A stretch of 64,000 nucleotides of DNA, from assembly GCF_902459565.1 (NCBI RefSeq), contig NZ_CABPSN010000002.1, forward strand, positions 558,001 through 622,000, given 5' to 3'. The notes beneath the pieces are model-generated. The model was not told where the DNA came from. It searched no databases and saw only the letters and a program-made list of their open reading frames with translations. Source of the stretch: Pandoraea aquatica (GTDB lineage Bacteria > Pseudomonadota > Gammaproteobacteria > Burkholderiales > Burkholderiaceae). Each line of letters starts with the position of its first letter. Positions within the stretch are counted from its first letter, which is position 1. Of this stretch, positions 45,306-55,652 are shown piece by piece. The position numbers were made by a program, and so were the translations under genes.

Positions 45306-45474
45306 TGTGCCGCCGCAGCCTGCGTCCTACACGACTTTGCAGGTGTTCCGCGCTCGTCCGGTTCGCTTAAATGACGCTTCACGGCGGAATTGAGCGCAGG
45401 ACACAGAAGGCATCTCTCCCTGCGCCTCTTCACGCACAAGCGTTGCTTGCGGGCGAATACTCGGGAGGTGGGCG

Positions 45475-46602
45475 GTGGGCGATCAACACGAAACGTTGTC
45501 GGTACGACAAGACGTCGAACGTGCGCAATGCGACCGGTCGCGTCATGCGGGCGCGACTGGCCGCACGGTGCTTCGTATCGACGGCGAGTTCCTGCGCCCG
45601 ACCGTCCCCGTCTTCACGGCCATCGACGGCCTGTGCGCGGCCACCGTTCACCTGAAGCTGGAGGGGCTGAACGCCGCAGGTTCGATCAAGCTCAAGACTG
45701 CGCTGCAACTGATCGACGACCTTGAATCCACCCATCGGATTCGGCCGGGTGCGCAGATCGTCGAATCGTCGTCGGGCAATCTCGGTGTGGCGCTGGCGAT
45801 GGTTTGTGCGAATCGCGGCTACCGATTCACATGCGTGACAGACCCCAATACATCGCGGCAGGCCATCCGGGCGATGCAGGCGGTCGGTGCCCGTGTCGTA
45901 CGCGTCGACCGTCGCGACGCACAGGGCGGCTATCTCGCAACACGCATCGCGTGGATTCGGGAGCAGGTTGCGCGCGACCCGAAGTGCATCTGGGTCAATC
46001 AGTATGCGAATCCGGCCAACTGGCGCGCGCACTTCCGGTGGACGGCGCCGGAAATCTTCTCGGCCTATCCGGACGTCGATCACCTTTTCATCGGTGCAGG
46101 GACGACCGGCACGTTGTTGGGCTGCCTTCACTATGTCCGTACCCATCGGTTGCGAACGCGCGTGGTCGCCGTCGACGCGGTGGGTTCTGTCACGTTCGGT
46201 GGACCGCCGGGGCCGCGCTTTATCCCGGGGCTCGGCACGAGTTGCAGGCCACCGCTCAGCGAGCTTTCGGACTCGGAACCGCCGGACGTCGTCGTCCATG
46301 TCCGTGAATCCGACACCTTGCGCATGTGCCACACGCTGGCCCGACGAGGGTTGCTGGCTGGTGGATCGACGGGCAGCGTGCTCCATGCCGTTCAGGCTTC
46401 AGCAGTAGACATTGCGGCAAGCGATACCGTCGTCGCTATCGCGCCCGACATGGGCGACAAGTATCTCGACACGCTGTACGACGGTGACTGGGCCTCGGCG
46501 TGCTTCGGAGATTCGCCATGTGTAACCAATGAATTCGATGAATCCGATGCGTCCGGCATTTCTGACGCTTCCATCGAAACCGTTGCACCGTCGCTGTCAT
46601 GA
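45475..46602 (+). CDS. sbnA: SbnA-like N-(2-amino-2-carboxyethyl)-L-glutamate synthase
   Basis: A 375-residue fold-type II PLP enzyme close to staphylococcal SbnA, which joins O-phospho-L-serine and L-glutamate into N-(1-amino-1-carboxy-2-ethyl)glutamate. Shared segments are ESSSGNLGVALAM, TCVTDPNTSRQAI, DAQGGYLATRIAW, NQYANPANW and VAVDAVGSVTFGG. The PLP lysine is in AAGSIKLKTA, where most relatives have KDR after the same serine. About 30 extra residues rich in Asp and Ser follow the family end. GTG 45475 stands six bases after GGGAGG. The stop overlaps sbnB by four bases. With SbnB it supplies L-2,3-diaminopropionate. Confidence 0.88.
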   Translation: MGDQHETLSVRQDVERAQCDRSRHAGATGRTVLRIDGEFLRPTVPVFTAIDGLCAATVHLKLEGLNAAGSIKLKTALQLIDDLESTHRIRPGAQIVESSSGNLGVALAMVCANRGYRFTCVTDPNTSRQAIRAMQAVGARVVRVDRRDAQGGYLATRIAWIREQVARDPKCIWVNQYANPANWRAHFRWTAPEIFSAYPDVDHLFIGAGTTGTLLGCLHYVRTHRLRTRVVAVDAVGSVTFGGPPGPRFIPGLGTSCRPPLSELSDSEPPDVVVHVRESDTLRMCHTLARRGLLAGGSTGSVLHAVQASAVDIAASDTVVAIAPDMGDKYLDTLYDGDWASACFGDSPCVTNEFDESDASGISDASIETVAPSLS

Positions 46603-47633
46603 ACGCACTCCCCATTCCCCAATTTCGCGTGTTCACGGGCGAGCAGATCGACACTGTCGTTCGCCACGGAAGGCGTGCCATTCTCGAGATCGTCGAAGCA
46701 GCGTATCGCGCGCATCACCGGGGCCAGACAGTGAATCCGGAGAGCCAGTTTCTCCGGTTTCCCGACGCGCAGCGCAATCGCATCATCGCGCTGCCAGCGC
46801 ATATTCGTGGAAGCGGCGAAGACTGCGAGGGTGTGACCGGCATCAAATGGATTTCGAGTTTCCCGGAGAACATCGAGCGCGGCGTGCCGAGGGCGTCTGC
46901 GGTGCTGATCCTCAACGATGCAGCGACGGGATACCCGATGGCCTGCATGGAAGCGAGCATCATCAGCGCGGCCCGCACGGCAGCGAGTGCCATCAGCGCA
47001 CTGCGATGCCTCGCGCGTGACGACGCATCTCGTCCTCGACGTGTAGCGTTTATCGGCGCGGGGGTGATTGCACGCCATGTCGCAGAGTGTTTGGCACTGG
47101 CGGAGCTGAGCATCGACGAGGTCATGGTGCATGACCTGAGCATCGGATACGCCGAGTCGCTTGCGAGTCGAATCGAAACACACATCGGGTTGAAGGCTCG
47201 CGCCGAAGCGTCGCTGGAAATCGCGATTCGCGATTCGGACATCATCGTTTTCACGACCACGGCGGTGTCTCCGCATATTGAAGACCCCGAATGGTTTGCA
47301 CACTGTCCGATCGTGTTGCATCTGTCGTTGCGGGATCTCGCGCCTTCGATTGTGATGGCGTCGCACAACGTGGTCGACGATATCGACCATTGCTTGCGCG
47401 CCTCGACGTCGCTTCATCTCACCGAAATCGCGACGGGCCATCGACGCTTCGTCACGACATCACTGCCGCACTTGCTGAGCGGCGGCGAGCCGCCGATGCG
47501 CAATCGGCCCATCGTGTTTTCTCCTTTCGGACTTGGCATTCTCGACATCGCCGTCGGACGCTGGGTCTACGAGTGTCTGGCTGCCGAGCAGGCACCCGTC
47601 CCCCGCTTTTTCTTTGATTTGCAACGCGCATGA
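46599..47633 (+). CDS. sbnB: SbnB-like 2,3-diaminopropionate synthase (ornithine cyclodeaminase family)
   Basis: A 344-residue NAD-dependent enzyme of the ornithine cyclodeaminase/mu-crystallin family. SbnB oxidatively splits the SbnA product into L-2,3-diaminopropionate and 2-oxoglutarate. Seen here: FRVFTGEQIDTVV, the substrate loop GVTGIKWISSFPEN, the dinucleotide motif VAFIGAGVIARHV and FSPFGLGILDIAVG near the end. The ATGA overlap with sbnA and a second ATGA overlap with the next gene show tight coupling. Its only known role beside an SbnA is diaminopropionate supply. Confidence 0.88.
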   Translation: MNALPIPQFRVFTGEQIDTVVRHGRRAILEIVEAAYRAHHRGQTVNPESQFLRFPDAQRNRIIALPAHIRGSGEDCEGVTGIKWISSFPENIERGVPRASAVLILNDAATGYPMACMEASIISAARTAASAISALRCLARDDASRPRRVAFIGAGVIARHVAECLALAELSIDEVMVHDLSIGYAESLASRIETHIGLKARAEASLEIAIRDSDIIVFTTTAVSPHIEDPEWFAHCPIVLHLSLRDLAPSIVMASHNVVDDIDHCLRASTSLHLTEIATGHRRFVTTSLPHLLSGGEPPMRNRPIVFSPFGLGILDIAVGRWVYECLAAEQAPVPRFFFDLQRA

Positions 47634-49111
47634 CCACAGCTTCCACCGCTTCATTTTGCCCCTCATCATCATCGGATCAACATACTTCGCCCGTGCCTGC
47701 GGGGTTCGCGGACGTCCTCGTCGGGCTGCAATATGGCGATGAAGGAAAGGCGAAAATCATCGACGCCCTCGCTCCCGGGTATGACGTGATCGCCCGATTC
47801 AACGGCGGGGCCAACGCGGGTCACACCATCGACACCCCGCAAGGGCGCATCGCGCTAAAGCAATTGCCGTCCGGTGTATTTCACCCTCACACAACGCTGT
47901 ATATCGGCTCGGGATGTGCCATCAATCCATGGAAGTTGGCGGACGAGATTAGTCAATTGCGCGAGATGGGCATCACCCTTGAAGGACGACTTCACATCAG
48001 TGCGCGAGCGGCATTGGTGCAGCCGCATCACATTGCGATGGATCGTCGCAATGGCGACACGATTGGCACGACCGGTAACGGTATCGGCCCGTGTTACGCA
48101 GACCGCGCTTTGCGGGTTCGCAACGATATGCGCGTGAATCTGATGCTGGGCGATCTGATCGCGAACGAATCCGAGGCCGTGGTTTCGATGCGAAACGTCT
48201 TCTCGCGCATGGTCAACGCGGAGGGCGGTACCTCGCCGTGGATGGCCGAAATGTCCGATCTGCTAAGGGACTTGCCGCAGGTAGCAGCATCCTTGCGCCC
48301 GTACCTCCAGGTGGATCGTGGATGGCTCACGAATCGTGTCAAGGCGGGCGCTAGCGTGTTGTTCGAAGGCGCGCAGTCGGTGTTGCTCGACGTCGTCGAG
48401 GGAAGTCAGCCCTATGTCACGTCGAGCCACACGGTACCAGCCTTCGCGTATGTGGGCGGCGATCTTTCGCCGAAGTACCACCGACGGACGATCGGTGTCG
48501 CAAAAGCCATCATGTCGCGCGTGGGACGTGGGCCATTTCCTTCGGAGCTTGGCGGCGAGCGCTCCGCACAGTATTGCCACGACGCGTCCCGGTTGCGCAT
48601 CGGAAAAGCCGAGGAGCAGTCACGTTTTTCCGTCGATACGTTGCTTCGCTCCAGCGATCCGTTCGACGTCGGTACGGCGCTTCGCATGCTTACAGCCGAG
48701 TACGGAACGGGCACCGGGCGGCCCCGCCGTATCGGCATGCTCGATCTCGCCCAGTTGAGAGACGTCATCAGAACGCACGCAGTGGACTGCGTGTATCTCA
48801 ACAAGGTGGACTGTCTCTCGCACTACGCAAAGTCGACTTATCAGGGCGTGCCGATGCGGGTACATCGCGATGTCCTGACAGCGGATGCCATGCCGGATGT
48901 TCTGGTCTACCCCGGCCTCACCGAGCAGTCGCTCGACCAGGGACGGGAAGGGATGCTGGATGCCGCTATGCACGGCTTTGTCGACTTCATCGAACGTCAC
49001 ATCGGGGCTCCCTTGGCCGGGCTGGGGCTCGGGCCTGAACGAGCCAGTCTGGTGTCGTTGGCCCCGCATCCCGTAGCACCCGTCGCGTCATCGATGCCTC
49101 ATGACGGATAA
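47630..49111 (+). CDS. Adenylosuccinate synthetase (PurA) paralogue
   Basis: A 493-residue PurA-family protein, longer than the usual 430 because of a 25-residue N-terminal extension and inserts. Key parts are retained: QYGDEGKAKIID (catalytic Asp and Lys), NAGHT (catalytic His), the GTP-specific NKVD, and EGAQ and YVTSS of the IMP site. Against E. coli PurA, from memory, GKGK is GKAK, TTGRGIGP is TTGNGIGP, and the aspartate loop TTGRRRR is GTGRPRR. It may be an inhibitor-tolerant copy giving self-resistance, or a ligase redirected to a new carbonyl/amine pair. No PurB follows. It overlaps both neighbours. Confidence 0.85.
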   Translation: MTTASTASFCPSSSSDQHTSPVPAGFADVLVGLQYGDEGKAKIIDALAPGYDVIARFNGGANAGHTIDTPQGRIALKQLPSGVFHPHTTLYIGSGCAINPWKLADEISQLREMGITLEGRLHISARAALVQPHHIAMDRRNGDTIGTTGNGIGPCYADRALRVRNDMRVNLMLGDLIANESEAVVSMRNVFSRMVNAEGGTSPWMAEMSDLLRDLPQVAASLRPYLQVDRGWLTNRVKAGASVLFEGAQSVLLDVVEGSQPYVTSSHTVPAFAYVGGDLSPKYHRRTIGVAKAIMSRVGRGPFPSELGGERSAQYCHDASRLRIGKAEEQSRFSVDTLLRSSDPFDVGTALRMLTAEYGTGTGRPRRIGMLDLAQLRDVIRTHAVDCVYLNKVDCLSHYAKSTYQGVPMRVHRDVLTADAMPDVLVYPGLTEQSLDQGREGMLDAAMHGFVDFIERHIGAPLAGLGLGPERASLVSLAPHPVAPVASSMPHDG

Positions 49112-50063
49112 GCAGTCCCGCATCGGCACGGACGGTGTTTCCGGCGGACACAGTGCACCCGCATTTGAGCGGAAACCTTGGCGAGAGGTTGCGGCAGTTA
49201 CCCGCTGTGCTACGGAGTTGCCGTTCCCGCCGCTGCTGCCCGGACATCTGTTCTTCAATGTGTCGCTCATGCCGTATGCGACGCATCCGTTAGTCTGCGC
49301 GCAAGGTCAGGCGGTGCGGCAGCGGTTGAGTGCACTGCGTCTCGGAGACTATCTGAACAAAACGGAACGGGTCGAGTTGTTCATCGTCAACCGGGCCATT
49401 GAGCAGATGCTCGACAGGGCGGAAATCATGGCCGTGAGTCGCGACGACTTGCTGGCGATCTACACGGACGAGGGCTTCCACACCTGGATGATGGAGCGCT
49501 TCCGATTACAGATGTTGCGTGTGACGGGGCACGTCATGGAGAAGCGAACCTCTCAGAGCGTTGCGCGGGTGCTGGCTCTGTGCGAATCGGCTTCTCCGGC
49601 GTATGCGGGCGTCGCAAGCATTGCCGCGGCGACGGTGACGGAGACGTTGATTACGGGAACATTGCGTCAGGCGGGCGCGGGCGACGAGATTTACCCGCCG
49701 GTGCACACGCTGCTCTCTGAGCATGGTGCCGATGAGATGCGGCATCAGGCAGCGTTCGTTCACTTCGCGAGCGAGTGGGTGCCTGAGCTTTCGGTCGATG
49801 AGCGCGAATGCCTCGATCAACTGTTGCCGGACCTGATGATGGCATTTCTTGCACCCGAGATCGCAACGTGGCGGGAGCATCTCGTTGCCATTGGGCTCGG
49901 CGAGCCTGAGGCCGATCGGGTGCTGCTGGAGAGCATCGATCCGTTGGCGGTGGGCGTGCAGATGATGGAGGCGGCGCGGGTGCCACGTCGTCTTTTCGAA
50001 CGCCTGGGACTGTCATGCGCAGAACGGTTTGCGCAACAGGCGAGCCGGTGGCGGCCACCTTGA
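49101..50063 (+). CDS. AurF-like diiron N-oxygenase
   Basis: A 320-residue helical diiron protein of the AurF/CmlI group. The iron ligands can be placed: a Glu in TERVELF or AIEQM, DEGFH (ExxH), a Glu in TVTETLITG, and HGADEMRH (HxxxExxH). The spacing matches p-aminobenzoate N-oxygenase. These enzymes oxidise amines to hydroxylamines, nitroso or nitro groups. In this context an amino group of diaminopropionate or a derivative is the likely substrate. The start overlaps the PurA-like stop by 11 bases. The island carries a flavin-reductase-like gene that could help supply electrons. Confidence 0.85.
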   Translation: MTDKQSRIGTDGVSGGHSAPAFERKPWREVAAVTRCATELPFPPLLPGHLFFNVSLMPYATHPLVCAQGQAVRQRLSALRLGDYLNKTERVELFIVNRAIEQMLDRAEIMAVSRDDLLAIYTDEGFHTWMMERFRLQMLRVTGHVMEKRTSQSVARVLALCESASPAYAGVASIAAATVTETLITGTLRQAGAGDEIYPPVHTLLSEHGADEMRHQAAFVHFASEWVPELSVDERECLDQLLPDLMMAFLAPEIATWREHLVAIGLGEPEADRVLLESIDPLAVGVQMMEAARVPRRLFERLGLSCAERFAQQASRWRPP

Positions 50064-50172
50064 TTGTGTCGCGCGATGGGACTTAAGCGCGAAGTCTTCG
50101 CAACGCGCGAGACGGATGAGGAAGTTTGAGCAAGATCGAACAAGGTTGAGGAACGGCGATCAGGAGGGACAT

Positions 50173-51219
50173 GTGACGTGTCATTGGCTTGCGCCCGATT
50201 TGACGATGAGTGCCCCGGACTACCGGGCGTTACTGAGTGCGGCGTTGTCGTTCAAGCGCCGATATCCCCTGCATACCGAGGGGGCGCTTCGTGACAGAAC
50301 GATCTACTTTCTCTTCTACAACGCGTCGCTGCGCACACGCAGCAGTTTCCAGACCGGGCTGGCGAGGTTGGGAGGGAACGCCATCGTCCTCGATCCGCAC
50401 GCAGGGATTTACACGCCCGCGCTCCCCGATGCGGAGATCCCCTACACGACAGAACGTGTGGCCGACGTCGCGCGGGTGCTGTCGTCCTACGGCGACGCGA
50501 TAGCGATTCGCATGTACGGCGCGCCCGCAGGCTGGGTGTACGGCGCGGCACACCGGCATCTTGAAGCGTTCGCCGAGTGGAGTCAGGTGCCGGTCATCAA
50601 CATGGAGTGCGACCGGTTTCATCCGTGTCAGGCGCTCGCAGATGTGATGACGCTACGCGAACAACTGGGCGGACTCACCGGGCGGAAGCTGTGCATCAGT
50701 TGGGCTTACTCGGGAAGCTGGCACAAACCCGTCGCGGTGCCGCAAAGTCTGCTGCTCGCCGCCGTCAAGACCGGGATGGATGTGACGCTCGCTTATCCGC
50801 CGCCGTTTGCGCTTGATTCTCACGTCATGGCGGCCGCCGCGCAGTTTGCTGGGCAGACGGGCGCGAGGATTCGCGTGACGCACGACTTGCGCGACGGCGT
50901 GACAGGCGCGCACGCCGTCTACGCCAAGTCGTGGTGCAGCCTGAACCATTTGCCGCAGCACTCAGGCGAAGCCGTCGACGAAGCCGGCATGCATGCAGTA
51001 TTCGAACGACATCGCGATTGGTGCGTAGACGCGGACATCATGCGTCTGGCCGCGCCGAATGCCGGCTATCTCCATTGCTTGCCGGTGGACCGGGGGCAGG
51101 AAGTGTCGGATGACGTCGTGGAAAGCCCGGCATCGTGGGTGTTCCGGCAAGCGGAGAACCGGCTGCATGCGCAAAACGCCGTGATGGCGCATCTGCTGAA
51201 TCCGGGGAGTCTGACGTGA
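50173..51219 (+). CDS. N-acetylornithine/ornithine carbamoyltransferase-like enzyme
   Basis: A 348-residue carbamoyltransferase closest in pattern to N-acetyl/N-succinyl-ornithine carbamoyltransferases: the carbamoyl-phosphate motif is NASLRTRSSF, then HPCQALADVMTL, YAKSWCSLNHLP and LHCLPVDRG. The start is GTG 50173 behind AGGAGGG; an ATG two bases earlier hits a stop at once. No other arginine gene is present, so it probably carbamoylates an amine or hydroxylamine of a diaminopropionate intermediate. The 109-base gap before it is the largest inside the first part of the island. The stop overlaps the next ATG (TGATG). Confidence 0.85.
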   Translation: MTCHWLAPDLTMSAPDYRALLSAALSFKRRYPLHTEGALRDRTIYFLFYNASLRTRSSFQTGLARLGGNAIVLDPHAGIYTPALPDAEIPYTTERVADVARVLSSYGDAIAIRMYGAPAGWVYGAAHRHLEAFAEWSQVPVINMECDRFHPCQALADVMTLREQLGGLTGRKLCISWAYSGSWHKPVAVPQSLLLAAVKTGMDVTLAYPPPFALDSHVMAAAAQFAGQTGARIRVTHDLRDGVTGAHAVYAKSWCSLNHLPQHSGEAVDEAGMHAVFERHRDWCVDADIMRLAAPNAGYLHCLPVDRGQEVSDDVVESPASWVFRQAENRLHAQNAVMAHLLNPGSLT

Positions 51220-52475
51220 TGCCATCGTTCTCTTATCGCTATGCCTGCGTGCGTTGCGCGACCCCGCAGACATGGGGGGCGATTCGCTATCGATGCCACG
51301 TGTGTGGTCAGAACCTGCGCATCCAGCGCAAGGCGAATGCAAACGCGCCGTCGGCGACGGATATCGTGACGGCGTTCCAGGAGAGTGAGACGGAGGGTAT
51401 GTGGCGATACGTTGCCCTGTTACCCGTCGAAGCGCATTGGGGCAGCCGGCTGCGCGTCGGCGGAACCCCCCTGATCGATTGCGGGGACGATGGTGGCGTC
51501 CGGCTTCGGATCAAGGACGAAGCGCGTAATCCCAGTGGTTCGCTGAAGGACCGGGCTACCGAGCTGGTATTGGCCATCGCAAAAAGCGTGGGGTGCAAGG
51601 GCGCAGTGACGGCGTCGACCGGCAACGCAGGCGCGTCGCTCGCGTGCATTGCTGCCTCGCAGGCCATGGCCGCAACAGTCGTGGTGCCCGCGAGTACTCC
51701 CTTGGCGAAGCTGGCGCAGATTCGGGCGTACGGCGCGAACGTCTGCGAGATCGGGGGGACCTACGACGACGCCTTCGAGATTGCCGAACGAATGGCCGAC
51801 GACACGCTCGTGTGCTGTCGGAACACCGGTGTGAACCCGTTCACGCGGGAGGGCAAGAAGACGTGTGCCTACGAGATTGCCGAAGCCATGGCGTGGCGTG
51901 TTCCCGACTGGGTCATCGTGCCGACGGGCGACGGCAACATTCTGTCGGGCATTGCGGCGGGATTTCTCGACCTGTTTGCGCTGGGCATCACATCGGGGAT
52001 TCCGCGTCTGATGGCCGCACAGGCCGACAGTTCTGACAGCATCGCCCGCGACTGGACGGCGCACGACGAGACGATGGCGTTACCGGTGTCGCCCACGGCC
52101 GTTGCGCCGAATACCGTGGCCGACAGTCTCTCGGTCAGTCGACCGCGAGATCACTTTGCTGCGCTGCATGCCCTTCGAGCCACGCGCGGCACTTGTGTGG
52201 TGGTGAACGACGAGTGCATTGCCGCCGCGTCGCGCACGCTCGCACAACACTTCGGTCTTTGGTATGAACCGTCGACGGCCGCAGGTTACGCCGCACTGCA
52301 AATGGGTGTCGCCAGCGGGTGTATCCCGTCGGGGGCGGACGTGGTGCTACTTGGCACCGGTAGCGGACTGAAGTCGCCGCAATCCTTCAATGGCGTGGCC
52401 GAGCCGCTCGCGGTACTGCCGGATTGTCGTGCGCCCGGCGACGATGGCCGTTTGCATCGCGGGACATGCCCATGA
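51219..52475 (+). CDS. Threonine-synthase-like PLP enzyme with zinc ribbon
   Basis: A 418-residue fold-type II PLP enzyme. The N terminus has two CxxC pairs (YACVRC and CHVCGQ), a small zinc ribbon seen in one class of threonine synthases. The PLP lysine is in NPSGSLKDRA, the phosphate-binding loop in TASTGNAGASLA, and PTGDGNILSGIAAG and LLGTGSGLKSP follow. Threonine synthase works on O-phosphohomoserine; an accessory copy here more likely performs a beta- or gamma-replacement or elimination on a pathway intermediate, or on O-phosphoserine. It overlaps both neighbours (TGATG and ATGA). Confidence 0.85.
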   Translation: MPSFSYRYACVRCATPQTWGAIRYRCHVCGQNLRIQRKANANAPSATDIVTAFQESETEGMWRYVALLPVEAHWGSRLRVGGTPLIDCGDDGGVRLRIKDEARNPSGSLKDRATELVLAIAKSVGCKGAVTASTGNAGASLACIAASQAMAATVVVPASTPLAKLAQIRAYGANVCEIGGTYDDAFEIAERMADDTLVCCRNTGVNPFTREGKKTCAYEIAEAMAWRVPDWVIVPTGDGNILSGIAAGFLDLFALGITSGIPRLMAAQADSSDSIARDWTAHDETMALPVSPTAVAPNTVADSLSVSRPRDHFAALHALRATRGTCVVVNDECIAAASRTLAQHFGLWYEPSTAAGYAALQMGVASGCIPSGADVVLLGTGSGLKSPQSFNGVAEPLAVLPDCRAPGDDGRLHRGTCP

Positions 52476-53440
52476 GTGCGCTGTCAGGCATGGACGTCAT
52501 CGTCGTAGGCGCGGGTGTGAGTGGGCTGACGACAGCAGTGGCGATGTCGCTGGCGGGTTGTCGCGTCACCATTCTCGCGGCCGAGGGGCCGTCGCAAACG
52601 ACGTCGGCGTTAGCGGCGGCGATCTGGCATCCGTTCTATCAGGCCCCCGATCTCGTCTATCTGGCGCGCGCGCGGCACACGTATGCCACGATGCATCGCT
52701 TGTCATCGGATGCTTCGTCCGGGGTGAGGATGAGGCCGTTGACCGAATATTTTCGACGCGACGCCGGCGTGCCCTGGTGGGCAGAATGCACCGGCGGTCT
52801 GTGCCGGGTGCCGCCGGAGCGTGTGCCGTCGCGCTTCGCCTGCGCCTACCGCATGGACGTGCCGGTCGCCGCCACATCGACCTACCTGTGCTATCTGATG
52901 AACATGTTCCTTGAACTGGGCGGGCGGTTCGTGCCGCGTCGTGTCGAGGGTCTGGCGTCATTGCTCGACGAGGTCGAGGTGGTGGTGAATTGCTGTGGCT
53001 TCGGCAGTCGCCAGTTCGGCGACGACGCCTTGTCGCTGTCGCGCGCGGTTGTGTTGCGAGCCACGCGTGACGACGCCGTACAAGGGTGTTTCATCGATGA
53101 CTCTGATCCTTTCGCACCGACGTACATCGTCGAGCGCGACGACGACATCGTCCTCGGCGGCACGGCAGAGCCCGACCTGACATCCACGGTCATCGGTCAA
53201 CGACAGATCGATGACATCGTGCATCGGTGCACACGACTCTGCGAGGGCGTTGCGGCCCTGCGTGTCATCGATGCGCGCGTCGGATTTCGTCCGGTGCGTC
53301 ATTCGCCGCGTGTTGTCCGGGACGAGCGGTACAGGCGCTTGCTGCACAACTATGGGCACGGAGGGGGTGGTTTCACCTTGTCTTGGGGATGTGCGAACGA
53401 CATCGTGCGACTCGCGGGCGGGGTGGCGAGCGACGGATGA
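52472..53440 (+). CDS. D-amino-acid oxidase family FAD enzyme
   Basis: A 322-residue FAD enzyme. The Rossmann motif is VIVVGAGVSGLTTAVAMSLAG, and the DAAO signature LLHNYGHGGGGFTLSWGCA lies near the C terminus. The carboxylate-binding arginine is probably in VGFRPVRHSPR and an active-site tyrosine in TYIVER, as in D-amino-acid oxidase rather than glycine oxidase. It would oxidise an amino acid or amine to an imine or keto acid with hydrogen peroxide release. In the pathway it could tailor the alpha-carbon or remove a D-isomer. ATG 52472 overlaps the preceding stop by four bases. Confidence 0.87.
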   Translation: MSALSGMDVIVVGAGVSGLTTAVAMSLAGCRVTILAAEGPSQTTSALAAAIWHPFYQAPDLVYLARARHTYATMHRLSSDASSGVRMRPLTEYFRRDAGVPWWAECTGGLCRVPPERVPSRFACAYRMDVPVAATSTYLCYLMNMFLELGGRFVPRRVEGLASLLDEVEVVVNCCGFGSRQFGDDALSLSRAVVLRATRDDAVQGCFIDDSDPFAPTYIVERDDDIVLGGTAEPDLTSTVIGQRQIDDIVHRCTRLCEGVAALRVIDARVGFRPVRHSPRVVRDERYRRLLHNYGHGGGGFTLSWGCANDIVRLAGGVASDG

Positions 53441-53497
53441 GCGTTCTCGCACCGTATGCATCACGCATCACCAAACGCAACTGCGTAAGGAGACCCG

Positions 53498-54142
53498 ATG
53501 GAACTGAACCCGGCGACGCTGGACGAGACGCGCATCTACAACTTCATGATGAGCACGATACTCCCGCGTCCGATTGCGTGGGTGAGTACGGTCGATGCGC
53601 TGGGGCGCTCGAACCTCGCGCCGTACGCGTACTTCATGGGCGTGTGTTGTGTGCCGATGACGGTGCTGTTCTGTCCTGTAGTGCCGCCGCAGCCAAGGCG
53701 AAAGAAAGACACACTGCACAACATCGAGGCGGTGCCGGAGTTCGTCGTGAACGTGGCGAGCACGTCGTGCATCGATGCCGTGAATCTCTCGGCGGCACCG
53801 TTGCCCCCCGGGGAGTCGGAATTCGATCTCACGGGCATGACGCCGGTGCCGTCGTCGCGGGTGCGGCCCCCGCGCGTTCGTGAGGCGTCCGTCGCCTTCG
53901 AGTGTGAGGTGCGCGACATCATCGAGATCAGTGCGGCACCCGGCGGTGGATGGGTCGTGCTCGGCACAGTGCTTGCCGCACACGTAGACGACGCGCTGCT
54001 CGATCCCGTGACGTGTCATGTCGACTTGCATGCCCTCAGTCCGGTGGGGCGTCTTGGCGGCGGCGCGTTCGTGAATGCCGCCACCGATACGTTCACGTTG
54101 ACACGCTACAAGACGCTTGCCGATCTTGCGTCGCGAAAGTGA
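53498..54142 (+). CDS. Flavin reductase-like FMN-binding split-barrel protein
   Basis: A 214-residue protein of the flavin reductase/DIM6-NTAB type. The FMN-binding region is ILPRPIAWVSTVDALGRSNLAPYAYFMGV, and KDTLHNIEAVPEFVVNVAS and VVLGTVLAAHVDD match the family. It may supply reduced flavin or electrons to the diiron oxygenase, or act as an oxidoreductase itself. AAGGAG precedes ATG 53498, 57 bases after the oxidase stop. Its 3' end overlaps the convergent luxR gene by 50 bases. Confidence 0.85.
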   Translation: MELNPATLDETRIYNFMMSTILPRPIAWVSTVDALGRSNLAPYAYFMGVCCVPMTVLFCPVVPPQPRRKKDTLHNIEAVPEFVVNVASTSCIDAVNLSAAPLPPGESEFDLTGMTPVPSSRVRPPRVREASVAFECEVRDIIEISAAPGGGWVVLGTVLAAHVDDALLDPVTCHVDLHALSPVGRLGGGAFVNAATDTFTLTRYKTLADLASRK

Positions 54143-55004
54143 TCTCTTTGATTTCCTGATGCGGCGGCCCCGCGACATCGTCGAGCAGTCCGTAGTCGCT
54201 GGCCATCTTCGCGGCACGATGGCGGCTCGATACTTCGAACTTGCGCATGGCGCTGCGCAGATGGAAGACGACGCCATGTTCAGAGAGTGTGAGGATGCGG
54301 CCGATTTCCCACGATGTCTTGCCGCATGCCACCCATCGCAAGCACTCGCGCTCGCGGGGTGTCAGTGCAGGCGCACAGCGCTGCGCCGCATCGCGCTGAA
54401 CGATGCGCCACACCGCTTCATGCACGTGGGCCGCGAGCACGACAGCGGCGTGCGACGCCCACACATGTGTGTCGGGTCCGTCGGCATCGTGCGTTGGCCG
54501 CGCGTTATAGCGTGCAGCCAACGTATGAGGTCGACTCTGATGCGGCGTCGATGGCCGCAGGCAATGCGCGGGGCGTCTTGATGAAGACAGACTCAATGTT
54601 CCCGATGCCCCCGATGGTGTGAAGACCGGATACGTGATGCCGAAGCGCAACCCGGCAGCGCGCTGTTCATCGAGCAACTGTCGTGCTTCGGGCGACGCAT
54701 ACAGTCCAGCCGTCCATTCCACGGGCGTGAGTTGCCGGGCGGCGAGCGAGAGGACCGGGTCGACGTTGTCGTAGCGTTGTGCGTCGTAACGTTGCTGCCA
54801 CACGCGGGGCAGGTTGCCGAGGCGCGGCGTTGCGAAACGGCCGTCGGGTAATGCGAAGTGACCGCGGTAACTGAAGTAGCGCTGGCCGAGCGCGCTGCAA
54901 AGCGAAGGGAGCAGCGCTTGCAGGACGTCGAAGTCGGAAGCGTTCTGCAGGGCGCTGAGACCGTCTGCAAACGAGTGGGGAGAGAGATGACGCGTGGCGC
55001 GCAT
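54093..55004 (-). CDS. LuxR-family quorum-sensing regulator (AHL-binding type, no luxI nearby)
   Basis: A protein of about 303 residues with an autoinducer-binding domain and a C-terminal GerE helix-turn-helix. The signature residues of AHL receptors can be placed in RVWQQRYDAQRYDNVDPVL and PVEW (Trp, Tyr, Asp-Pro, Trp), and the HTH is LTPRERECLRWVACGKTSWEIGRILTLSEHGVVFHLRSAM. A 50-residue insert rich in His, Pro and Arg separates the domains. ATG 55004 is used; the frame is open to 55379 but the extra residues look non-coding. No luxI is present, so it is a solo regulator or works with a distant synthase. It is convergent with the island and probably controls it. Confidence 0.85.
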   Translation of the reverse strand: MRATRHLSPHSFADGLSALQNASDFDVLQALLPSLCSALGQRYFSYRGHFALPDGRFATPRLGNLPRVWQQRYDAQRYDNVDPVLSLAARQLTPVEWTAGLYASPEARQLLDEQRAAGLRFGITYPVFTPSGASGTLSLSSSRRPAHCLRPSTPHQSRPHTLAARYNARPTHDADGPDTHVWASHAAVVLAAHVHEAVWRIVQRDAAQRCAPALTPRERECLRWVACGKTSWEIGRILTLSEHGVVFHLRSAMRKFEVSSRHRAAKMASDYGLLDDVAGPPHQEIKEITFATQDRQASCSVST

Positions 55005-55652
55005 GACAAAGCGATGTAGGGAACATGTTTCGCTTGTAGCATGGGTCTGATGGCAGTGCGCAGCGGGCTTCGCTGCATCGTGCGTGGTCCGTGCGTCGCC
55101 GCGTGGCAGCGGCGACGGAATGCCAAAGCGATAACGGATCGCAGCTTTGCGGCAAAGCCCCTTGATGAGGCTATGTCGCCACAACATCGACGCATCAGAG
55201 GTGGGCGCGACATAACGTCGCACGCGAAATCCGGCACAGCGTCTACTGTTGATGGATATCGGACGAATCCCGCATCGCAACGAAGCCGTCGATGTGAAGA
55301 CGAGGCGGTGCGAGCCGATGATGTGCCGATGATGTGTCGTTCGAATGTGTCGGTTGGCAGGGTATTCAGGACACCGCAACGAGTCGTCGCGTGTTGCATT
55401 GTGTCAATCGTGCGACGCATAGGGAGTATCCCGTAGTCGCTCGGCCGTTGGGATTTCCGGCTAGGGGATTAACCGGATTTCCCTTTTGCATCAATGAGTT
55501 CAGGAGGATGCTATGGCGCGCCAAATACTCGGTATCAATGTTGTCGCTTCGAGAATGCGCGTTCTATAATGCGGCAGTTTGTCGCGGCCCGGACGCAACT
55601 AGTTCCCGGCCGTCGGACATGAAAGACCCAAAATGCCCCACGGGTGACGGCG
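55005..55652. other. Gene-poor stretch between luxR and the cytochrome oxidase genes
   Basis: These 648 bases hold the luxR leader, possible remnants of the island junction, and the cox promoter at 55541-55570. A plus-strand frame at 55041-55436 is rich in Arg and Ser and looks like chance. I find no tRNA, integrase or flanking direct repeat that would mark an integration site. Confidence 0.5.
55541..55570 (+). promoter_or_regulatory. Sigma-70 promoter upstream of the DUF2244-cox operon
   Basis: TTGTCG (55541-55546), an 18-base spacer and a perfect TATAAT (55565-55570). It lies about 80 bases before the DUF2244 gene and is the clearest housekeeping promoter in the window. Confidence 0.65.

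What the first reader, a model, noticed from the sequence alone, without database searches (positions are those of the whole stretch)
45475..54142. Compact gene island predicted to make an unusual diaminopropionate-derived small molecule
Eight same-strand genes, most with start/stop overlaps, encode SbnA, SbnB, a PurA paralogue, an AurF-like diiron N-oxygenase, an acetylornithine-type carbamoyltransferase, a threonine-synthase-like enzyme, a D-amino-acid oxidase and a flavin-reductase-like protein. SbnA/SbnB are established to give L-2,3-diaminopropionate. The set lacks NRPS, PKS, NIS synthetase and carrier proteins, so the product should be a small modified amino acid. I know of no described pathway with this combination. 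Product class is inference from enzyme families.
Basis: partly seen in the sequence, partly recalled or inferred. Interest (0 to 1): 0.92.

Follow-up and report, generated by a model that had tools for sequence, protein, structure and literature searches.

The report
Uncharacterised quorum-linked amino-acid antimetabolite gene cluster
A tight eight-gene operon in Pandoraea bacteria, mostly shared in the same order with a distant soil actinomycete, looks like a pathway that turns diaminopropionate into a small nitrogen-oxidised molecule, and a spare copy of a purine enzyme hints at what that molecule attacks.

Summary
Eight same-strand genes (45475-54142) encode SbnA, SbnB, a PurA-like protein, an AurF-type diiron protein, a transcarbamylase, a threonine-synthase-like PLP enzyme, a D-amino-acid oxidase and a flavin-reductase-like protein. 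The window is Pandoraea. The eight genes, in order, are in each of 18 Pandoraea loci fetched through the island-type PurA; the transcarbamylase is in 28 of 32 Pandoraea genomes (frameshifted in two). Seven recur in the same order in Kitasatospora phosalacinea (38-65% identity): one co-inherited unit. Two islandless Pandoraea show the empty site; the insert includes a convergent luxR. A lux-box-like site precedes sbnA in 19 of 19 Pandoraea sequences.

The product is unknown. Best guess: SbnA/SbnB make L-2,3-diaminopropionate, AurF oxidises an amine and the transcarbamylase carbamoylates, giving an aspartate-like antimetabolite of the alanosine/hadacidin type, with PurA2 as an insensitive adenylosuccinate synthetase for self-protection. 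PurA2 keeps the catalytic motifs checked but belongs to a deep non-canonical clade. The transcarbamylase has neither the published diaminopropionate-transcarbamylase motif nor two acetylornithine specificity residues. I found no description of this gene set in the open papers searched. The cluster looks real and uncharacterised; its chemistry is unproven.

The parts
45326..45343 (+). lux-box-like palindrome CCTACACGACTTTGCAGG; 131 bases lie between it and the sbnA start codon
   Evidence: Conserved block in the alignment of 19 Pandoraea upstream regions; a box found in 19 of 19, 18 of them fitting CCTACA-N6-TGCAGG; two places of the strict palindromic form in the 5.96 Mb genome, control pattern 1 forward and 1 reverse.
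45475..46602 (+). sbnA-like PLP enzyme, first enzyme of diaminopropionate synthesis
   Evidence: PF00291; TIGR03945 above cut-off; GTG start behind GGGAGGT.
46599..47633 (+). sbnB-like dehydrogenase, releases L-2,3-diaminopropionate
   Evidence: PF02423; TIGR03944 above cut-off.
47630..49111 (+). purA2, adenylosuccinate-synthetase-like; proposed immunity copy
   Evidence: PF00709 326 bits, below the purA equivalog cut-offs; catalytic motifs checked are kept; separate clade from canonical PurA; canonical PurA elsewhere in the genome at 603.6 bits.
49101..50063 (+). AurF-type diiron N-oxygenase
   Evidence: PF11583 above cut-off; residues aligned with the seven metal ligands of AurF invariant in 7 of 7 orthologues (which AurF residues are ligands is recalled).
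50173..51219 (+). transcarbamylase of unknown acceptor
   Evidence: PF02729 and PF00185; PDB best hit N-acetylornithine carbamoyltransferase; HCLP motif; start.
51219..52475 (+). threonine-synthase-like fold II PLP enzyme with N-terminal cysteines like a zinc ribbon
   Evidence: PF00291; below the thrC cut-off; GSLKDR and NPxTREGKKT in 6 of 6 orthologues.
52472..53440 (+). D-amino-acid oxidase family flavoenzyme
   Evidence: PF01266; PDB best hits D-aspartate and D-amino-acid oxidases; HNYGHGG and GFRP in 6 of 6 orthologues.
53498..54142 (+). flavin-reductase-like protein
   Evidence: PF01613; PDB hits include nitrilotriacetate monooxygenase component B and 2-nitrobenzoate nitroreductase; absent from the two empty sites.
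54093..55379 (-). luxR-type regulator with autoinducer-binding and GerE domains, inserted with the island
   Evidence: PF03472 and PF00196; absent from the two empty sites.

Best explanation
This is a quorum-linked, carrier-free biosynthetic operon for a small antimetabolite built on L-2,3-diaminopropionate (Dap). SbnA joins O-phosphoserine and glutamate and SbnB oxidises the adduct to Dap (recalled as established for the named families; here shown only by model cut-offs). The AurF-type diiron enzyme oxidises an amine of Dap or a derivative, with electrons perhaps from the flavin-reductase-like protein. The transcarbamylase adds a carbamoyl group. The threonine-synthase-like and D-amino-acid-oxidase enzymes tailor the carbon skeleton or the alpha-amine (inferred; order and substrates unknown). 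A plausible core is 3-(N-hydroxyureido)alanine or a ring-closed form of it, an aspartate mimic with a metal-binding N-OH/C=O pair like that of hadacidin or alanosine. PurA2 is proposed to be an inhibitor-tolerant adenylosuccinate synthetase that protects the producer. LuxR with its box turns the operon on at high cell density (inferred).
For: Same gene order in two phyla; single insertion with an empty site; purifying selection on the eight genes; SbnA and SbnB above curated cut-offs; positions of the AurF metal ligands invariant; PurA2 keeps the P-loop, NAGHT, GTTG, EGAQ, RVG, TGR-RR and K-D motifs while canonical PurA is also present; three PurA-like proteins nearest the Kitasatospora island copy stand in actinomycetes without island genes beside them, as expected of an immunity or self-sufficient enzyme; no nucleotide-processing enzyme (lyase, phosphatase) among the island genes. 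Hadacidin and alanosine as poisons of adenylosuccinate synthesis are recalled; one paper in my listing treats hadacidin with this enzyme (PMC6136348, listing and abstract start only). Dap as proposed alanosine precursor: PMC11705231, passages.
Against: No product, substrate or activity is known. PurA2 is not a close copy of the host PurA but a member of an old, widespread PurA-like family, one branch of which sits in an unrelated Burkholderiales operon, so immunity is not the only reading. Changes at positions recalled as the aspartate site (E. coli R131 to N, T300 to G) are shared by much of that family, and T300 also differs in canonical Pandoraea PurA, so they do not specifically mark resistance. 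No exporter lies among the island genes. The HDLP motif of known Dap transcarbamylases is missing, so carbamoylation of Dap itself is doubtful. The roles of the threonine-synthase-like and oxidase genes are unexplained.
Confidence: 0.4

Rival explanations
1. PurA2 is a biosynthetic enzyme: it couples a Dap-derived amine or nitro-amino acid to IMP, so the product is an N6-modified nucleotide or the pathway uses AMP as a leaving group.
For: The IMP and GTP motifs checked are kept; purA2 is translationally coupled in mid-operon and occupies the same slot in Kitasatospora; positions recalled as the aspartate site differ from canonical Pseudomonas PurA. 3-Nitroalanine as a substrate of adenylosuccinate synthetase is recalled from older enzymology, not looked up.
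Against: No lyase, phosphatase or nucleosidase among the island genes; related PurA-like proteins exist without the island.
Confidence: 0.22
2. The island makes a non-proteinogenic amino-acid building block or metallophore part that is used elsewhere, for example by an adenylating enzyme.
For: The Kitasatospora copy is followed at once by an AMP-binding protein whose best PDB matches are oxalate-CoA ligase and malonyl-CoA synthetase; Dap is a known siderophore and antibiotic precursor (PMC11479980, passages).
Against: No such gene in the Pandoraea island; pandorabactin is predicted from its NRPS to hold hydroxy-ornithine, Asp, Ala and Thr, not Dap (PMC12144892, passages).
Confidence: 0.18
3. 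The product is a signal molecule rather than a toxin, a counterpart of the fragin/valdiazen case in Burkholderia.
For: Own luxR and lux-box-like site; fragin biosynthesis in Burkholderia is controlled by a novel quorum-sensing signal (PMC5878181, title and abstract start only).
Against: No LuxI among the island genes; no LuxR match in the 17.5 kb of the Kitasatospora locus; a PurA copy has no obvious role in signalling.
Confidence: 0.1
4. The transcarbamylase and threonine-synthase-like proteins, like PurA2, are target duplicates rather than biosynthetic enzymes.
For: Each resembles a primary-metabolism enzyme, and an ornithine transcarbamylase duplicate gives self-protection in phaseolotoxin producers (PMC4530439, title and abstract start only).
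Against: Both fall below the equivalog cut-offs; three different targets for one molecule is unlikely; two residues that define AOTCase substrate choice are changed.
Confidence: 0.06

Closest known systems
L-alanosine pathway (Streptomyces alanosinicus ala/aln clusters)
   Same: Dap-derived, N-oxygenated amino acid; recalled to act on adenylosuccinate synthesis.
   Different: Alanosine is proposed to use an acyl-CoA-dehydrogenase-like N-hydroxylase, a cupin candidate and CreD/CreE homologues or nitrate/nitrite-reductase-derived NOx for its N-N bond (PMC11705231, passages); none of these is among the island genes, which hold an AurF-type enzyme and a transcarbamylase instead.
Viomycin and zwittermicin A beta-ureidoalanine branch
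   Same: Dap followed by carbamoyl transfer (PMC4581275, passages).
   Different: Dap transcarbamylases carry an HDLP motif; the island enzyme has HCLP, and there is no NRPS in the island.
Hadacidin (N-formyl-N-hydroxyglycine), structure recalled
   Same: Small N-hydroxy amino acid that blocks adenylosuccinate synthetase.
   Different: Simpler molecule; no gene cluster was available for comparison here.
Staphyloferrin B sbnA/sbnB
   Same: Same two-enzyme route to Dap.
   Different: Those feed siderophore synthetases (PMC3179956, abstract start only); none in the island.
Pandorabactin (pan) cluster of Pandoraea
   Same: Specialised metabolism spread through the genus.
   Different: An NRPS siderophore; the authors call pandorabactins the first characterised natural products of the genus (PMC12144892, passages).

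Membership tests
SbnA/SbnB diaminopropionate synthases | Both proteins above the curated equivalog cut-offs, adjacent genes | tested here: met
   375.1 vs 349.95 and 376.5 vs 326.9 bits; 4-bp overlap.
AurF-type diiron N-oxygenases | PF11583 match and seven metal ligands | tested here: met
   74.7 vs 29.6 bits; positions aligned to AurF ligands invariant in 7 of 7 (ligand identity recalled). Structure prediction never ran: machine busy.
4-aminobenzoate N-oxygenase (AurF itself) | NF045603 cut-off | tested here: not met
   34.2 vs 620 bits.
N-acetylornithine transcarbamylase | PRK04523 cut-off; Glu92 and Lys302 | tested here: not met
   281.5 vs 288 bits; aligned residues are Thr141 and Glu358 of the 50029 frame; residues named in PMC4581275. 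Asn185, also named there, was not checked.
Diaminopropionate transcarbamylase (VioL-like) | HDLP motif | tested here: not met
   HCLP in 6 of 6 orthologues; motif from PMC4581275.
Canonical adenylosuccinate synthetase | purA equivalog cut-offs and catalytic residues | tested here: inconclusive
   Below cut-off (301.8 vs 402; 263 vs 395.55) but the motifs checked are kept (the R143 and T239 patterns were not found by the script and were not scored); separate clade. Four of five candidate-phylum or archaeal genomes searched have one PF00709 protein only, the fifth has two, and a Desulfuromonadaceae genome has a canonical one besides; genome completeness was not told.
Threonine synthase | thrC equivalog cut-offs | tested here: not met
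   TIGR00260 145.8 vs 167.1; PRK08197 224.6 vs 303.
L-alanosine-type diazeniumdiolate pathway | Acyl-CoA-dehydrogenase-type N-hydroxylase, CreD/CreE or nitrite reductase, cupin | tested here: not met
   None among the eight genes and luxR; features from PMC11705231 passages. The rest of the genome was not searched for them.
Self-resistance target duplicate | Second copy tolerates the cluster product | not testable with these tools
   Second copy present alongside canonical PurA; tolerance needs an assay.
LuxR-regulated operon | luxR gene plus conserved lux-box-like site before the operon | tested here: met
   DNA binding and signal response not tested.

The most novel reading that the evidence does not exclude
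A carrier-free enzymatic route to an N-hydroxyurea amino acid (3-(N-hydroxyureido)alanine or a cyclised relative): a new aspartate-mimic antibiotic class against adenylosuccinate synthetase, made by an AurF-type oxygenase acting on an aliphatic amine plus a new transcarbamylase specificity, exchanged between Actinomycetota and Pseudomonadota and put under quorum control in Pandoraea.
Probability: 0.17. Interest if true: 0.86.

Novelty: new variant of a known kind. Interest (0 to 1): 0.66.

Why it matters
Pandoraea is an emerging cystic-fibrosis lung genus; in 2025 pandorabactins were called its first characterised natural products (PMC12144892, passages). An operon for a small non-peptide molecule, held by 28 of 32 Pandoraea genomes searched and apparently quorum-linked, would be a second such trait, with a testable target suggested by its own PurA copy. 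It would also give new enzyme specificities: a diiron oxygenase probably working on an aliphatic amine, and a transcarbamylase with an unknown acceptor. Gene sets of this kind, without NRPS or PKS genes, may be easy for core-enzyme-based cluster finders to miss (my own judgement, not tested).

Tried and rejected
Considered and rejected: (1) scattered or chance neighbours, rejected by synteny; (2) an N-acetylornithine or Dap transcarbamylase label, rejected on cut-off and motifs; (3) an alanosine cluster, because its N-hydroxylase and N-N genes are not among the island genes; (4) PurA2 as a recent duplicate of host PurA, rejected by the tree; (5) the flavin-reductase-like gene as a resident neighbour, rejected because it is missing from both empty sites; (6) a plasmid-borne close copy, no megablast match in the plasmid collection.

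Led nowhere: viral-contig scan for the transcarbamylase, 42 pattern matches and no relative; plasmid tblastn with the Kitasatospora transcarbamylase, 534 records, each under 60% identity, the 20 listed at 34-40%; the class of the Pseudomonas genome G728, 0 of 369 without a positive control; an actinobacterial hit (G737/L103) has two transcarbamylase matches and a weak threonine-synthase-like match but none of the other queries; LuxI search in the own genome gave two weak hits, 29.6 bits each against a cut-off of 24, one beside another luxR-like ORF (by eye). The two alanosine cluster papers are not held.

Limits: genome searches are samples (300 of the order, with one other Pandoraea in it; 394 of the family and 394 of the class of the Kitasatospora genome) and used the transcarbamylase profile only, with few candidates scored per genome. 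The genome-contig scan used PurA2 peptides, so a distant cluster without a near PurA would be missed. Of the four islandless Pandoraea two were shown to have the empty site; for G017 only the left flank was recovered and G025 was not fetched.
Full report
WHAT IS THERE. Pfam gives PALP, OCD_Mu_crystall, Adenylsucc_synt, AurF, OTCace/OTCace_N, PALP, DAO and Flavin_Reduct, each above its curated cut-off. NCBIfam puts SbnA and SbnB above the equivalog cut-offs; the matches listed for the other proteins fall below theirs, and the flavin-reductase-like protein matches no NCBIfam model. Start and stop overlaps link sbnA-sbnB-purA2-aurF and carbT-thrS-dao; carbT (GTG 50173, AGGAGG before it) and flavR begin after gaps of 109 and 57 bp. 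No tRNA gene and no Rfam hit at gathering threshold were found in the window, and GC is even across it (0.61-0.66 in 2-kb windows).

WHOSE IT IS. Best relatives of PurA2 in the GTDB-species contig collection are Pandoraea commovens and P. anapnoica at 92% (the window's own genome may be left out there). tblastn of the eight proteins and LuxR (E 1e-8) against the 76 loci then held: all eight plus LuxR, in the same order, in the 18 Pandoraea loci fetched through an island-type PurA (L004-L020, L024). Three other Pandoraea loci of that scan (L028, L030, L031) hold a different PurA-like gene of species already counted. Kitasatospora phosalacinea NRRL B-16228 (L021) has SbnA, SbnB, PurA, AurF, CarbT, ThrS and DAO in the same order at 52, 53, 55, 38, 65, 52 and 47% identity. 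An AMP-binding protein follows there and then the contig ends, so whether a flavin reductase lies beyond cannot be told. The remaining loci, apart from the window's own L001, gave a match to PurA only. A profile of six transcarbamylases found the enzyme in 1 of 300 Burkholderiales genomes (the window's own), 1 of 394 of the family of the Kitasatospora genome (itself), 2 of 394 of its class (itself and one false lead) and 0 of 369 of the class of a Pseudomonas genome, a draw without a positive control.

ONE INSERTION IN PANDORAEA. A single transcarbamylase query found the island gene in 28 of 32 Pandoraea genomes; G017, G023, G025 and G030 have only ordinary transcarbamylase matches. In G030 and G023 the flanking methyltransferase gene runs straight on to the orfX-coxB-coxA genes, with none of the eight genes and no luxR between (L100 and L101): that is the empty site. 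In G017 only the left flank was recovered, and G025 was not fetched. Among the ten genomes compared by gpsA, the four islandless ones are the lowest (72%, and 80% over a partial match for G025), the nearest carrier being G028 at 81%. Two of 28 carriers, G020 and G027, have a frameshift in carbT; the other seven genes there align without internal stops. The frameshift may be decay or sequencing error. For G003 the stop reported lies upstream of the likely start, but its LuxR alignment contains a stop. Comparison of the window with 19 loci (best tblastn segment of each gene; L020 was dropped before the count) gives median pN/pS of 0.13-0.28 for the eight genes and 0.38 for luxR, against 0.04-0.10 for three flanking housekeeping genes: purifying selection, looser than housekeeping.

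REGULATION. Upstream of sbnA the 19 Pandoraea sequences (window and 18 loci) align poorly except for a block around CCTACANNNNNNTGCAGG and a stretch just after it. A best-palindrome search with CT/AG anchors found a box in 19 of 19, of which 18 fit that consensus and P. terrae has a more symmetrical variant (the search itself favours palindromes). In the window the site stands at 45326-45343; at up to two mismatches the window holds 7 matches against 2.7 expected, reached by 5 of 100 shuffles, so loose matches mean little. Genome-wide the strict palindromic form occurs at two places, one being this promoter; the reversed control pattern gave 1 forward and 1 reverse match. With the inserted luxR this makes quorum control likely, not shown. 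Four loci (L014, L015, L016, L020) carry an NHL-repeat propeller gene between flavR and luxR: Pfam-tested in L014 and L020, by motif in L015, by eye in L016. L004, L010 and L017 lack the motifs; in the window flavR and luxR overlap and leave no room for it.

PURA2. The genome has three PF00709 proteins: canonical PurA (603.6 bits), PurA2 (326.1) and a third (300.0) on another contig than the island. PurA2 keeps GDEGK, NAGHT, GTTG, EGAQ, RVG, TGR-RR and the K-D of the GTP site; at the positions I recall as E. coli Arg131 and Thr300 it has Asn and Gly. Two further motif patterns were not found by the script in the canonical reference and were not scored. A 33-row maximum-likelihood tree separates canonical from PurA-like proteins (100/100, a long branch that the program flags). 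Seven Pandoraea island PurAs form one clade (100/94), sister to a clade of the Kitasatospora island PurA and three solitary actinobacterial proteins (100/99 for that clade and for the union). No match to the other island genes lies in the loci of those solitary copies. The third Pandoraea copy belongs to a different gene neighbourhood, with a RidA-like gene (Pfam-tested in the P. commovens locus) and, by eye and by Pfam on a Cupriavidus relative, a pyridoxamine-oxidase-like protein, an MFS carrier and an AraC regulator. Four of five candidate-phylum or archaeal genomes reached through loci have a single PF00709 protein and the fifth has two (completeness not told), which suggests that the family can serve as PurA. 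I read PurA2 as a working, divergent adenylosuccinate synthetase; a biosynthetic role remains open.

OTHER ENZYMES. The AurF-type protein keeps each residue aligned with the diiron ligands of solved AurF but is far from the aminobenzoate oxygenase model. The transcarbamylase is nearest in the PDB to an N-acetylornithine transcarbamylase, keeps the SLRTR and HPCQ motifs, and differs at Glu92 and Lys302, two of the three residues said to tell that substrate from succinylornithine; it has HCLP rather than the HDLP of Dap transcarbamylases (PMC4581275, passages). It is the best conserved of the seven shared proteins between the two phyla (65%). The threonine-synthase-like protein has GSLKDR and CRNTGxNPxTREGKKTC in 6 of 6 orthologues. 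The oxidase has HNYGHGG and GFRP in 6 of 6, which I recall as marks of D-amino-acid oxidases. The flavin-reductase-like protein is nearest to flavin-using proteins, among them 2-nitrobenzoate nitroreductase, which would suit either electron supply to the diiron enzyme or reduction of a nitro group.

MECHANISM. Shown: family membership, synteny, insertion, constraint, conserved promoter motif. Follows from recalled family knowledge: Dap from SbnA/SbnB. Inferred: N-oxidation, carbamoylation, tailoring, target and immunity. Hadacidin and alanosine as poisons of adenylosuccinate synthesis (recalled), and Dap as the proposed alanosine precursor (PMC11705231, passages), make an aspartate-mimic antimetabolite the simplest reading of a set that contains Dap synthesis, an N-oxygenase and a spare PurA. 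I put 0.4 on that reading and about 0.85 on the weaker claim that the island makes a Dap-derived small molecule.

NOVELTY. Nine literature searches in the open PMC library showed no description of this gene set; I saw titles and abstract starts of the listed papers (some lists were capped, as 20 of 132) and passages of five papers. The 2025 Pandoraea paper states that pandorabactins are the first characterised natural products of the genus (PMC12144892, passages). Most subscription papers, including the two alanosine cluster papers, could not be read, so a description outside the library is possible.

Noticed in passing
G000:C4:172660-173985 (L002, L028; also L026, L027, L032, L037, L042, L072): Another PurA-like gene in Burkholderiales and one Pseudomonas sits beside a RidA-like gene (in several), a pyridoxamine-oxidase-like flavoprotein, an MFS carrier and an AraC-type regulator, with a divergent alpha/beta hydrolase in several: an unnamed pathway with a PurA-like enzyme. 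Pfam-tested on single proteins of L026, L028 and L042, the rest by eye from ORF starts (output partly cut).
   Followed up: partly
L022, L023, L075 (Catellatospora, Acrocarpospora): Solitary PurA-like genes in actinomycetes, in one clade with the Kitasatospora island copy, with no match to other island genes in their loci; possible stand-alone immunity genes.
   Followed up: partly
L014, L015, L016, L020, between flavR and luxR: An NHL-repeat beta-propeller gene of about 290 codons belongs to the island in some Pandoraea and has no room in the window.
   Followed up: partly
G020 (L099) and G027 (L097): carbT alone of the eight genes is frameshifted in these two Pandoraea genomes.
   Followed up: partly
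L021:15731-17446: An AMP-binding enzyme, best PDB matches oxalate-CoA ligase and malonyl-CoA synthetase, directly follows the Kitasatospora copy at the contig end.
   Followed up: partly
G000:C4:87635-87652 (L108): The only other strict lux-box-like palindrome in the genome lies inside or beside genes that look, by eye, like an aromatic-ring monooxygenase operon (ferredoxin-like, coupling-protein-like and hydroxylase-like ORFs).
   Followed up: no
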